Origin: a virus
IMG/VR virus record: IMGVR_UViG_3300048833_000639
Location: 1 to 20,605 of that record
Strand: one strand, 5' to 3'
Length of the DNA: 20,605 bases
Part shown: positions 9,435-12,965 of the stretch, piece by piece
Numbering within the stretch: the stretch's first letter is position 1
Layout of the letters: each line of letters opens with the position of its first letter
Notes under the pieces: generated by a model
Databases searched by the model: none
Told to the model about the DNA's origin: nothing
Seen by the model: only the letters and a program-made list of their open reading frames with translations
Program-made: the position numbers and the translations under genes

Positions 9435-10256
9435 ATGACCACCACTTCTCTTGACCTGAACACCCTCGACGCTCTGTCTGCTTCGCTCGACCTCGACATC
9501 GAAGTCGCCGCGCTCGAAGAAGCCGAGCGAGCTGCCGAGATTGCCGCTCAGGCGGCTGCCAACCCGGCCCCGGCCCAGGCCCCGGCCACCCCGGATGCCG
9601 AGCCCGAGGAGCTCGTCATGCCCTCGCATGTGCCCGGCGTCCTGAAGGACATGGCGAGCAACATCACCGCGCAGCAGATCACCGTGATGACGGATGCGGT
9701 CAACGCCGAGTTCGCCGGGCGCATCGCCTTCGAGCAGTCGATGCCGACGATCTCCTCGAAGATGGTGCCGAACCTCGAAGCCGCGCAGAAGCGCATGACC
9801 AGCGAGAGCGCGGTGCGCGCCTTCTGCGCGATGGACATCGATCCGGGCTTCCTCAACCGCGAGGTCAACACCGGCACGCGCTTCAACGTCTACGCCCTCG
9901 AGAAGATCAACGACCTGGTCGTCGGGCTCACCGCGGGCTTCGTGAAGAACGCCATCAACCGGGCGATGCTGCTCTCGCTCTTCCGGTTCCAGGAGGCGGG
10001 TGTGCCCTTCACCGGATCGGCCGCTGCCGCTGCCGTGTCGGACAAGATCAAGATCGACCGCAAGACGGGCGCGCTGCTCACCCGGCACACCGCCTCGCCC
10101 TCGACGGCGCCGACCCAGAAGAGCCAGGTCATGAACTCGCTCCAGGTGCTCGGCATCGTCACCAGCAACCGCCTGAAGGGCGACAACGAGGTCTTCACGC
10201 TGACCGACACGCCCCAGACCCGCGCACTGAAGGAGGCTCTGCTGCCGACCACCTGA
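9435..10256 (+). CDS. Hypothetical protein beside the iteron region, 273 aa
   Basis: The ATG at 9435 is preceded by AAGGAG at nine bases. Residues 1-60 form an acidic helix (DIEVAALEEAERAAEIAAQAAA) and then a Pro/Ala linker (NPAPAQAPATPDAEPE). The rest is a folded, mainly helical domain. The C-terminal 70 residues (VSDKIKIDRKTGALLTRH..., then LQVLGIVTSNRLKGDNEVFTLTD) look like a winged-helix DNA-binding fold. It is the first gene after the iteron and AT-rich region, so a replication or regulatory protein acting there is possible, though I recognise no Rep family. It is followed by a strong terminator at 10290 and is probably monocistronic. Confidence 0.75.
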   Translation: MTTTSLDLNTLDALSASLDLDIEVAALEEAERAAEIAAQAAANPAPAQAPATPDAEPEELVMPSHVPGVLKDMASNITAQQITVMTDAVNAEFAGRIAFEQSMPTISSKMVPNLEAAQKRMTSESAVRAFCAMDIDPGFLNREVNTGTRFNVYALEKINDLVVGLTAGFVKNAINRAMLLSLFRFQEAGVPFTGSAAAAAVSDKIKIDRKTGALLTRHTASPSTAPTQKSQVMNSLQVLGIVTSNRLKGDNEVFTLTDTPQTRALKEALLPTT

Positions 10257-11160: not shown

Positions 11161-11325
11161 TGGGCAGGCCGAGAGGGGCAGGTGCAGGTCAAGGCCCATG
11201 GGGAGCCATGGCAGATGTGCGTCAGGCGTGCGGGTCGGGGAACGGCGCCGGTTACGGGCTCCGCGGCCGGACCTGGCCGGCGCAGGCTCAGGTGCAGGGG
11301 CAGGGTTCCGCCGCCCGGCCACGCC
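11161..11325. repeat. GG/CC-dense non-coding segment
   Basis: Gene-free, rich in GGGGC, CAGG and CCATGG. It includes the second GGGGAACGGCGC copy (11237-11248) and a CAGGGGCAGGGTTCCG copy (11295-11310) related to the 3' end of the 7508 gene. Confidence 0.4.
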
Positions 11326-11353
11326 AAAAAGCCCCAGGCTGGGTGCCTAGGGC
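11326..11353 (-). terminator. Intrinsic terminator (minus strand)
   Basis: Read on the minus strand, GCCCTAGGC and GCCTGGGGC pair around ACCCA, then TTTTT follows. It lies 21 bp after the stop of the 66-aa gene. Confidence 0.8.
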
Positions 11354-11373
11354 TGGTTGGGGTCGGCTGGCGT

Positions 11374-11574
11374 TCAGGCTTTCTCCTTCTGGCATCTGGG
11401 GAGCAGGCTGATCTGCATCCCGTTGGGCAAGGCCGTTTGGCTGGGCTTGTAGGCCTCGAACAGCTTCAGGCAGTCCATCCGGCTCAGGCCATGGTCGGCG
11501 ACCAGGGCGACCTCGCTGGGTGGCTGCCCGGCCATGTAAAGGATGGTGACGACGGCGAAGGCGTAGGTGAACAT
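11374..11574 (-). CDS. Small exported or membrane protein, 66 aa
   Basis: The start at 11574 (MFTYAFAVVTILYMAG) has GTGAGGG just upstream, which also contains the stop of the previous small gene. The N-terminus is hydrophobic, a signal anchor or cleavable signal. The remainder includes two cysteines (RMDCLKLFEAY and LLPRCQKEKA) and ends basic. It resembles small alphaproteobacterial proteins with a hydrophobic start and a Cys-containing tail, but I have no named family. It is followed by a good terminator. Confidence 0.6.
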   Translation of the reverse strand: MFTYAFAVVTILYMAGQPPSEVALVADHGLSRMDCLKLFEAYKPSQTALPNGMQISLLPRCQKEKA

Positions 11575-11582
11575 GCCGGCCC

Positions 11583-11705
11583 TCACCACAGGCCGGCCAG
11601 GGCAGCAAACCGTGCCCGGGCCAGGCGTGTGATGGGGTGGTCGGCGCCCAGGCTGAACTCGGCCAGGCGCCAGGCGCGGAAGAGGGTCTTGGATCGGGAG
11701 GTCAT
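11583..11705 (-). CDS. Very small basic protein, 40 aa
   Basis: The ATG at 11705 opens MTSRSKTLFRAWRLAEF and runs 40 codons to TGA 11583-11585, immediately before the next gene's start (the stop is part of that gene's ribosome-site region). It is rich in Arg and Trp and helical. There is no convincing Shine-Dalgarno beyond CAGAGACC. Close coupling is the main support, so it is a moderate-confidence call. Confidence 0.4.
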   Translation of the reverse strand: MTSRSKTLFRAWRLAEFSLGADHPITRLARARFAALAGLW

Positions 11706-11773
11706 GGCAGGTCTCTGAGGCTGGGGTGTGCGGGCGCGGGACGCCCCGGCCGCCTATAGGCCAGGCCCGGGGT

Positions 11774-11815
11774 CTCGCGAGAGAAAGCGCGAGCGCTCAT
11801 TGCTGAGCGCTCGCG
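11774..11815 (-). terminator. Perfect 12-bp hairpin after the GG/CC-free gene
   Basis: CGCGAGCGCTCA (11788-11799) and TGAGCGCTCGCG (11804-11815) form a perfect stem with a TTGC loop. On the minus strand CTTTCTC follows, then a TCTCGCGAGA palindrome (11774-11783). It begins 7 bp after the stop of the 204-aa gene. The T run is imperfect, so termination is likely but not certain. It also contains no GG or CC. Confidence 0.6.
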
Positions 11816-11821
11816 TCGTTG

Positions 11822-12436
11822 TCAGACAGTCTCTTCGATCGTCTCGTCTTCGAGCGCGATCTGCTCGTAAGCGATCGCGAGCTTGTCGCAGAGCGCTTTC
11901 GCGAGCGCATTCATGTTGACGTCATACTCATTGCGCTTGTCGCTGCGCTCTTTGATGATGTTGAGCATGCGCAGCGCGTCGAGCGACGATTGATGCTGCG
12001 CTTTCACAGTGCTGTCGTCGACATGCTTGCTGTTCTGATAGACGATGCTCTTGCGAGCGTCGTCGACTTTGATGCTGCTGCTGCAGCACGCGACGATGTC
12101 GCTGAGATGCAGCGTCGTGCGATTGACGTGCGCGTTGATCGCAGTGCGAAACGCGCAATACATCATGACATTGTTGAGCGCGACTTTGTGATTAACGATC
12201 TGCGCGCTGAACTTCACTGCTTTCTCGATCGCATAGATCGCGCGATCGAAGATCGTCGCATCGATCTTATTCTGCATGAAGACAGCGCACAATTCAGCGC
12301 TTGTCGCGAAAGCGTCGCGCATCGCGCTGAGCTTCAGATAGTTTGACGACGAGACGTTGCGCGACTGCGCGACGACGAGACGTGCATCGATCGCAGCGAC
12401 GAAAGCGATCTGAGCGTTATCGATCTTCTTCGACAT
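11822..12436 (-). CDS. Unknown helical protein with no Gly, Pro or Trp, 204 aa (GG/CC-free gene)
   Basis: The start at 12436 (MSKKIDNAQIAFVAAIDARL) is chosen over an upstream ATG at 12526 because the extension looks non-coding and contains the leader motif. The product is predicted largely alpha-helical, with five Cys and many Ala, Asp, Ile and Lys. It has no Gly, Pro or Trp, the residues whose codons need GG or CC. Codon third positions are mostly G or C (Ile is almost always ATC), so it behaves as a normal expressed gene of this genome. Codons GCC, ACC, TCC, CGG and AGG are absent, and junctions avoid C|C and G|G. The ribosome site is necessarily weak (AGAAAGA). A terminator-like hairpin follows the stop. 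No family or function is recognised. Confidence 0.8.
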   Translation of the reverse strand: MSKKIDNAQIAFVAAIDARLVVAQSRNVSSSNYLKLSAMRDAFATSAELCAVFMQNKIDATIFDRAIYAIEKAVKFSAQIVNHKVALNNVMMYCAFRTAINAHVNRTTLHLSDIVACCSSSIKVDDARKSIVYQNSKHVDDSTVKAQHQSSLDALRMLNIIKERSDKRNEYDVNMNALAKALCDKLAIAYEQIALEDETIEETV

Positions 12437-12466
12437 TGTAGTATCTTTCTGTTGAGCGCATGTTAG

Positions 12467-12477
12467 CGCGTTGCTGA
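12467..12477 (-). promoter_or_regulatory. Leader motif TCAGCAACGCG of the GG/CC-free gene
   Basis: On the minus strand this 11-mer is identical to 4403-4413 in leader module A. It ends 30 bp before the ATG at 12436. I did not find a convincing closing stem around it. Confidence 0.4.
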
Positions 12478-12562
12478 TGTTGTTTTGTTTGTAGTCTCTA
12501 GCGCTTCTAGTGAAGCACTGATACACAATTCACGATGTCAAACAGCGCACAGATAAGCGTTC

Positions 12563-12907
12563 GGGATGCGTCGTGTGACGCTACTCGCTTCGTTCTCTGT
12601 CTCTCGACTGAGTGAGTAGCGCGTCGCTCTCTCTCTGTCTTGATGATTGATATTACGAAGTCTTAGATGATTTGTCGTCGTGTCGATGGGGATGCCTTCT
12701 GTGCCCGGCAGCTTCCCCGGCTCCAAACCTCCCATGTCCAGCCGAGCAGCTCCCGACTCCGGACGCCCTGCACTCCCCTCCCCTCTCCCGGCACCAGGTC
12801 TCCCGGATCCCGGCCTCCCCTCTCCCTGCTCCCGGCATGAGGATCGAGCTATGTGGCTGGGTAGCTATGGAGCTATGTCCTGCCCGCCCCGAGATCGGGG
12901 ATTGGTC
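12563..12907. other. Gene-free stretch: GG/CC-free remainder, then CC-dense tract
   Basis: 12566-12687 again lacks GG and CC. From 12688 the strand flips to a very C-rich pattern of CTCCC, CCCGG and CCTCCC words up to about 12840. The AGCTAT element (12846-12878) follows. The plus-strand open frame here gives a Pro/Ser-rich low-complexity peptide and I do not call it a gene. Confidence 0.6.
12846..12878. repeat. AGCTAT repeat cluster
   Basis: GAGCTATGTGGCTG, then GGTAGCTATGGAGCTATG. This is a divergent member of the GATAGCTATC family that clusters around parA. It lies about 100 bp upstream of the tRNA genes. Confidence 0.45.
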
Positions 12908-12965
12908 CTATCCTCCCAGGTCGAGAAAGTAAGTAAGCATTGACTTACTTTTCATGGGAGGATAG
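12908..12965. repeat. 11-bp inverted repeat enclosing the tRNA operator
   Basis: CTATCCTCCCA (12908-12918) and TGGGAGGATAG (12955-12965) are perfect inverted arms that enclose the palindromic operator and the -35 of the tRNA promoter. Confidence 0.6.
12929..12948. promoter_or_regulatory. Palindromic operator, copy 2
   Basis: GTAAGTAAGCATTGACTTAC: left arm perfect, right arm with one change from TTACTTAC. It overlaps the -35 (TTGACT) of the tRNA promoter. Confidence 0.65.

What the first reader, a model, noticed from the sequence alone, without database searches (positions are those of the whole stretch)
11773..12562. 790 nt without a single GG or CC dinucleotide in a GC-rich genome
Direct reading shows no GG or CC on either strand between 11773 and 12562, and only one GGG up to 12687. 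About a hundred would be expected from base composition (rough estimate). CG and GC steps are abundant, so this is not simple AT-richness. I know of no described system that makes such an island. Possible causes: escape from a nuclease, CRISPR PAM (for example a GG/CC type) or modification enzyme that reads GG/CC; a CC-directed deaminase history; an RNA that must avoid strong stacking, G-quadruplex or Shine-Dalgarno-like sequence; or self-protection from a phage nuclease.
Basis: seen in the sequence. Interest (0 to 1): 0.95.

Follow-up and report, generated by a model that had tools for sequence, protein, structure and literature searches.

The report
GG/CC-free gene at phage end
A family of bacterial viruses keeps one gene next to the physical end of its genome free of every GG and CC base pair-step (at the price of a protein with no glycine, proline or tryptophan), which suggests that something in the infected cell reads this tiny DNA word and that this one gene must escape it.

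Summary
It is not a curiosity of one contig. The same island lies at the same place in about 27 phages and phage-plasmids of Rhizobium, Sinorhizobium, Shinella, Ancylobacter, Methylocystis, Methylobacterium and, slightly changed, Acinetobacter (up to ~1.5 kb). Each phage checked carries a paralogue of the island gene 2-4 kb away with normal GG/CC, so the property belongs to the place, not the protein. Some lineages forbid a smaller set: GGV only (IMG/VR 2821013286) or GGR only (Paracoccus), always with the complement. In two relaxed lineages sense GG stays forbidden while CC returns. From published repeat lengths of two relatives I place the island at the end of the 3.6-3.9 kb direct terminal repeat, beside an invariant TCTAAGACTTCG box. 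In three lineages the gene is inverted, yet the island stays by the box. The island protein is a predicted helical plus winged-helix protein. Best reading: a terminal, probably first-entering unit exempt from a GG-reading DNA-acting factor, most likely the phage's own winged-helix protein. Mechanism unproven (0.3); phenomenon near certain. I found no description of it.

The parts
11773..12562 (.). GG/CC-free run (the island core)
   Evidence: 0 GG, 0 CC, 113 expected
12566..12687 (.). continuation of the island up to the box side; interrupted only by GGG at 12563-12565
12563..12565 (+). GGG exception (CATCCCG on the gene's strand); a GGGATCG/CGATCCC-like exception recurs in many relatives 60-100 nt from the box, in either orientation: possible operator
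11822..12436 (-). island gene, 204 aa, no Gly, Pro or Trp; predicted helical N part and winged-helix-like C part
12656..12667 (-). box TCTAAGACTTCG; one copy per B1VFA genome, one per locus where found; marks the edge of the island and lies inside the interval deduced for the genome terminus in B1VFA
12688..12696 (-). conserved GGCATCCCC element upstream of the box (28 nt start to start in 16 of 17 phages, 29 here)
11788..11815 (-). perfect 12-bp hairpin after the stop codon; GG/CC resumes about 15 nt beyond it
   Evidence: sequence
9435..10256 (+). paralogue of the island gene (273 aa, 11 Gly, 15 Pro) with normal GG/CC: internal control
11301..11772 (.). GG/CC-dense flank (20-30 per 100 nt)
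12688..12900 (.). GG/CC-dense flank on the box side (29-30 per 100 nt)

Best explanation
The island is a transcription unit beside the physical end of a phage-plasmid genome (in the direct terminal repeat) that has been purged, by selection on DNA, of a very short word (NCC, BCC or YCC depending on the lineage, with the complement). Purging exempts this unit from a DNA-acting factor that reads the word and that acts on the rest of the GC-rich phage and host DNA. I think the most likely reader is the phage's own winged-helix protein family (island protein and/or its paralogue): an early DNA-binding takeover or silencing protein whose own gene, probably the first DNA to enter the cell, must stay uncovered and expressible. 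Shown: the strict and conserved absence, its local extent, the paralogue control, the lineage-specific nested motif sets, the conserved box.
For: Strict islands at the same place in about 27 phages/plasmids. Same-family paralogue with 41-74 GG and 41-101 CC in the phages where it is complete (hhalign probability 95.8%): the property is local, not inherited with the protein. Strand-symmetric motif sets that vary by lineage: GGN; GGV in L075 (938 nt free, GGT/ACC 13 against 15 per 600 nt elsewhere); GGR in L114 Paracoccus (1104 nt free, GGY/RCC not depleted). A diverging phage protein is a natural source of such drift, and no other gene clearly co-varies. The island length follows its gene content (one gene about 0.75 kb, two or three genes 1.2-1.5 kb) and GG/CC often resumes about 15 nt after the gene's hairpin. 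The gene is inverted in L115, L172 and L173, yet the island stays by the box. Winged-helix fold: paralogue best Z 9.1 (MepR), island protein best Z 7.1. Of 95,971 possible 3,605-nt windows of B1VFA only one block maps to about 3,939 nt in V1VFA-S, the two published repeat lengths, and its end interval contains the box. The GG/CC-densest windows of phage X66 lie mainly in the same few kb.
Against: No binding or expression data; sequence specificity of the protein is unknown and a fold shows no function. L014 has a nearly identical protein to strict relatives but 10 CC. Faunimonas L115 has the opposite strand bias relative to the box and GG/CC in the first 55 nt. Relatives with a box and a related gene but normal GG/CC exist (Aeromonas L171, Magnetospirillum L116), so the requirement is not universal. 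The terminal position rests on lengths reported in one paper and one pair of phages.
Confidence: 0.3

Rival explanations
1. Leading-end immunity: the island is the first DNA injected and must lack the site of a host nuclease, restriction-like system or CRISPR PAM until its product has disarmed that system, as T7 and T5 are described to do with restriction sites.
For: Terminal position; dsDNA-symmetric short motifs that differ between lineages; island ends soon after the gene(s); early-type small genes and a ligase adjoin the same end.
Against: A host system reading a 2-3 nt word would have to exist in hosts as far apart as Rhizobium, Methylobacterium and Acinetobacter. A cutter does not explain the stricter rule for sense GG in L014 and L019. 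No such system is known to me. CRISPR prevalence in these hosts was not tested.
Confidence: 0.22
2. Primase-free end: the phage (or host) primase needs a (N/B/Y)CC template, and the island prevents lagging-strand priming at the terminus so that a long 3' single-stranded tail remains for annealing or strand invasion between terminal repeats.
For: Short lineage-specific words resemble primase start sites; position at the terminal repeat end; the strand with its 3' end at the terminus is the one kept CC-free in L014 and L019; the phages encode a RecA-like protein, UvsW-type helicase, 5'-3' exonuclease and primase.
Against: Only one strand would need purging, but both are purged in nearly all phages. 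The island length follows gene content. Faunimonas L115 has many GG/CC in the first 55 nt. Relatives that also need a primase (L116, L171) lack any depleted trinucleotide there.
Confidence: 0.13
3. Transcription from modified DNA: cytosines in CC of virion DNA carry a bulky modification (or nick) that blocks the unmodified host RNA polymerase, so the first-expressed unit must lack CC in its template strand and largely in the other.
For: Sense GG (template CC) is the strictest; start of the island at the box and end near the hairpin; CC-specific viral modification enzymes are known to me (CviPII).
Against: No modification gene recognised in about 20 X66 proteins tested (incomplete). Virion DNA was sequenced normally. 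Other early genes would also need purging.
Confidence: 0.13
4. RNA-level exemption: an RNase or translation factor reads GG (and CC) in RNA and this transcript is exempt, like ACA-less mRNAs that resist MazF.
For: Untranslated regions and codon junctions are purged as well; the island equals a transcription unit; sense GG is strictest.
Against: Each lineage's rule is exactly self-complementary (GGT with ACC allowed in L075; GGY with RCC allowed in L114), which an RNA rule does not predict.
Confidence: 0.1
5. A local mutational process (for example a CC-directed deaminase) erases GG/CC without selection.
For: GC is lower in the island than in the genome.
Against: Codon replacements in several phages are not those of C-to-T change (A-ending codons before non-G codons about doubled in X66, L016, L024) and each phage uses different codons; CC sites vanish although Gly and Pro codons need protein change.
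Confidence: 0.05

Closest known systems
T5 first-step-transfer / T7 leading-end avoidance of restriction sites (from memory; T5 record note)
   Same: A terminal region said to enter first, encoding early proteins (T5 A2 is annotated as a DNA-binding protein), that lacks sites read by a host enzyme.
   Different: There the missing site is a 6-bp or longer site; here a 2-3 nt word is absent for 0.7-1.5 kb and even shapes the protein. The T5 and phiCbK terminal repeats have no such island.
SSU5-like phage-plasmids and rhizobial plasmid-like prophages (pLM21S1, RHEph10, B1VFA)
   Same: Related helicase, paired ParB genes, terminase, capsid and RepC-type plasmid lifestyle. The island was found only in this relationship.
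   Different: The island has not been described in the papers found; Salmonella SSU5 itself shows only weak depletion at the corresponding place.
PAM or restriction-site avoidance in phages
   Same: Purging of a short recognised word on both strands.
   Different: Usually genome-wide and partial; here local and practically complete.
MazF-resistant ACA-less mRNAs (from memory)
   Same: A transcript exempt from a reader of a short word.
   Different: Engineered single-strand RNA rule; here a strand-symmetric rule.
Winged-helix DNA-binding proteins (MarR/MepR, AF1382, TubR type)
   Same: Predicted C-terminal fold of the paralogue (Z 9.1) and of the island protein (Z 7.1).
   Different: No significant sequence family match in Pfam or PHROGs; function unknown.

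Membership tests
SSU5-like phage-plasmids (broad sense) | Homologous helicase next to two ParB-like genes, terminase and capsid genes in this order | tested here: met
   tblastn of the window helicase to SSU5, Klebsiella, Acinetobacter and other phage-plasmids at 39-44% identity; same order in annotated records. The window holds the helicase and one ParB-like gene only; the rest by relatives
SSU5-like phage-plasmids (broad sense) | Plasmid replication and partition genes | tested here: met
   ParA and ParB in the window; RepC annotated in relatives; RepC not seen in the window itself, which is a fragment
T5-like first-step-transfer region | Gene lies in a long direct terminal repeat | tested here: met
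   Inferred for B1VFA/V1VFA-S from repeat lengths 3,605/3,939; the window itself by synteny only
T5-like first-step-transfer region | This end enters the cell first and transfer pauses | not testable with these tools
   needs infection experiments
Restriction-site or PAM avoidance | A host enzyme that reads the missing word | not tested
   no such enzyme identified; CRISPR content of hosts not surveyed
Winged-helix DNA-binding proteins | wHTH fold | tested here: inconclusive
   AlphaFold2 models pLDDT 81 and 77.5; VIA Z 7.1 and 9.1; Z under 8 may be a common arrangement for the island protein
Winged-helix DNA-binding proteins | DNA binding | not testable with these tools
   needs EMSA
MazF-exempt mRNAs | Single-strand RNA motif rule | tested here: not met
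   rule is strand-symmetric incl. L075 and L114

The most novel reading that the evidence does not exclude
A phage-encoded protein family reads a 2-3 nt DNA word (GGN, GGV or GGR by lineage) across GC-rich host and phage DNA to take over the cell, and the phage's terminal, first-entering operon is kept totally free of that word, down to excluding glycine, proline and tryptophan from its own protein: a previously unknown self-versus-other code written in dinucleotides.
Probability: 0.25. Interest if true: 0.97.

Novelty: categorically new. Interest (0 to 1): 0.93.

Why it matters
It points to a strong, unidentified DNA-reading activity at the start of infection. It can be tested directly: which word is forbidden can be predicted per phage, paralogues and relaxed relatives are natural controls, and isolates exist (B1VFA, V1VFA-S, RHph phages).

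Tried and rejected
Assembly artefact (rejected: independent isolates). Protein-family trait (rejected: paralogue has normal GG/CC). Codon or tRNA shortage for Gly/Pro/Trp (rejected: untranslated parts and codon junctions are purged too). CC deaminase scar (disfavoured; the window alone does not decide). Gene whose loss explains relaxed lineages: comparison of L019 and L075 with strict phages gave only one 96-aa protein (X66 119049-119336), weak evidence. Box as promoter of the gene: unlikely in general because the gene is inverted in L115, L172 and L173, although it may be one where the gene follows it. Island protein families: no significant Pfam or PHROG match. DNA-modification genes in X66: none recognised among about 20 proteins. 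T5 and phiCbK terminal repeats: no island. Literature searches for GG/CC avoidance: nothing. A scan with a mis-set gap found nothing. GTDB scan with the island protein found nothing; the helicase scan found five relatives. Foldseek 'viral' library and Rfam were not searched.

Full report
WHAT IS THERE. The window is a 20.6-kb IMG/VR virus fragment, 63.7% GC. From 11773 to 12562 it has no GG and no CC on either strand; shuffles of the same bases give 113 ± 8 with a minimum of 87. After a single GGG at 12563-12565 the avoidance goes on to 12687. Inside lies a 204-aa gene on the minus strand (11822-12436) with no glycine, proline or tryptophan, the three amino acids whose every codon needs GG or CC. 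Codon choice alone would leave 18 GG and 34 CC in this gene. Both flanks are dense in GG/CC, 20-30 per 100 nt.

IT IS CONSERVED AND LOCAL. tblastn found distant homologues (37-39% identity) in Rhizobium phages X66, V1VFA-S and B1VFA. All have the island at the same place: 1278 nt in V1VFA-S, 850 in B1VFA, 335+431 in X66 with one CC. The RHEph10 group (about 20% identity) has it too, 1.1-1.4 kb with two or three small genes. More came from IMG/VR, from plasmids pRlX6, pLM21S1 (1333 nt) and Pararhizobium p5, from Ancylobacter and a Methylocystis MAG (692 and 1256 nt), and from Shinella and Methylobacterium AMS5 (about 1.5 kb in the latter). In the complete X66 genome the island is the only region with fewer than 14 GG/CC per 300 nt (mean 42) and the next longest free run is 81 nt. 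Several of these phages are near relatives, so the number of independent cases is smaller than the number of records.

THE CONTROL INSIDE EACH PHAGE. An HMM of the island proteins finds a paralogue 2-4 kb away in the phages where that stretch was held (window 9435-10256), encoded convergently and with ordinary GG (41-74), CC (41-101), Gly and Pro where complete (profile comparison 95.8%, E 7e-9). So the family tolerates GG/CC; the place does not.

In L075 (107.9 kb) 938 nt are free of GGA, GGC and GGG and their complements, while GGT/ACC stands at its normal level. In the Paracoccus element L114, 1104 nt are free of GGA, GGG, TCC and CCC only, while GGC, GGT and complements are not depleted. 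In the A. baumannii plasmid pAF-673 (41% GC) the first 1.1 kb beyond the box hold no GGV/BCC apart from the box itself, with five GGT/ACC in all. Thus GGR, GGV and GGN are nested sets and always strand-symmetric. In two relaxed rhizobial lineages CC has returned (10 in L014, 30 in L019) while sense GG is still 0 and 2 (p = 0.007 and 5e-5 against equal relaxation). Relatives L072, L116, L170 and L171 show no comparable island, and SSU5 only a weak depletion.

WHERE IT SITS. The island starts at TCTAAGACTTCG or a variant; GGCATC lies exactly 28 nt upstream (start to start) in 16 of 17 phages and 29 nt in the window. The paper on B1VFA and V1VFA-S reports direct terminal repeats of 3,605 and about 3,939 bp (PMC12509600). 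I aligned the two genomes and asked which 3,605-nt windows of B1VFA correspond to 3,936-3,942 nt of V1VFA-S: of 95,971 testable starts, only the block 39,631-39,809 does. It ends at 43,235-43,413; the box is at 43,245-43,256. The island is therefore, by inference, the outermost part of the terminal repeat. Small early-type genes and a ligase adjoin this end of the genome and structural genes the other, so this end probably enters the cell first; that step is inference. In Faunimonas, Methylobacterium AMS5 and Acinetobacter the gene inside the island is inverted while the island still adjoins the box, so the box is not simply the gene's promoter.

WHAT THE GENE MAY DO. No Pfam or PHROG family matches significantly. 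AlphaFold2 gives a helical N part and a winged-helix-like C part (pLDDT 81; best VIA Z 7.1, rmsd 3.2 A over 81 residues); the paralogue is a clearer winged helix (Z 9.1 to MepR, rmsd 2.5 A over 80). Fold does not prove function.

MECHANISM. The data require selection against a short DNA word in one unit. The strand-symmetric rule argues for reading of DNA rather than RNA; the sense bias argues that transcription of the unit is what must be protected; the extent follows the gene content. I commit to self-exemption: a phage DNA-binding protein of the winged-helix family reads the word, and its own operon, the first DNA in, is kept free of it (0.3). Rivals are leading-end immunity to a host enzyme (0.22), a primase-free end (0.13), transcription off modified DNA (0.13), RNA-level exemption (0.1) and a mutational scar (0.05). 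Each makes a different prediction listed under next steps.

COMPARISON WITH THE KNOWN. The elements belong, broadly, to SSU5-like phage-plasmids; pLM21S1 and RHEph10 were described as a new group of plasmid-like prophages (PMC4447125), without mention of this island in the passages read. T5 and T7 leading ends lacking restriction sites (from memory; the T5 record notes that its terminal repeat enters first) are the nearest functional precedent. The T5 and phiCbK repeats have no such island. Literature searches found no description of a GG/CC-free region.

Noticed in passing
X66 94968-95750 (L006:44968-45747): A 260-aa core protein matching phrog_5235 looks by eye like a third member of the winged-helix paralogue family; the resemblance was not tested.
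   Followed up: no
X66 119049-119336 (L007:19049-19336): A 96-aa protein is present in six complete strict phages and absent from altered phages L019 and L075; a weak candidate for a co-factor of the rule.
   Followed up: partly
L062 about 4525 (plasmid pRlX6): The island gene of pRlX6 appears frameshifted by one missing A in a poly-A run (annotated ORF starts late), yet the region stays GG/CC-free.
   Followed up: no
L008 15304-15984 (RHEph10 gp148): The published gene gp148 is annotated on the opposite strand; the conserved island gene is on the minus strand.
   Followed up: yes
window 12907-12960: Inverted repeat around AAGTAAGTAAGCATTGACTTACTT with GGGAGGATAG on both sides; similar AAGTAAG..CTTACTT elements stand near tRNA genes and island genes in relatives.
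   Followed up: no
L168 (IMGVR_UViG_3300016665_000758), near the box at about 1200: A G/P/W-free 196-aa member beside a TGTAAGACTTCG box with partial GG/CC avoidance: a possible intermediate.
   Followed up: no
L172 17258-18450 (A. baumannii pAF-673): Motif-free island in clinical Acinetobacter phage-plasmids; hundreds of related Klebsiella, E. coli and Acinetobacter plasmids exist and were not surveyed.
   Followed up: partly
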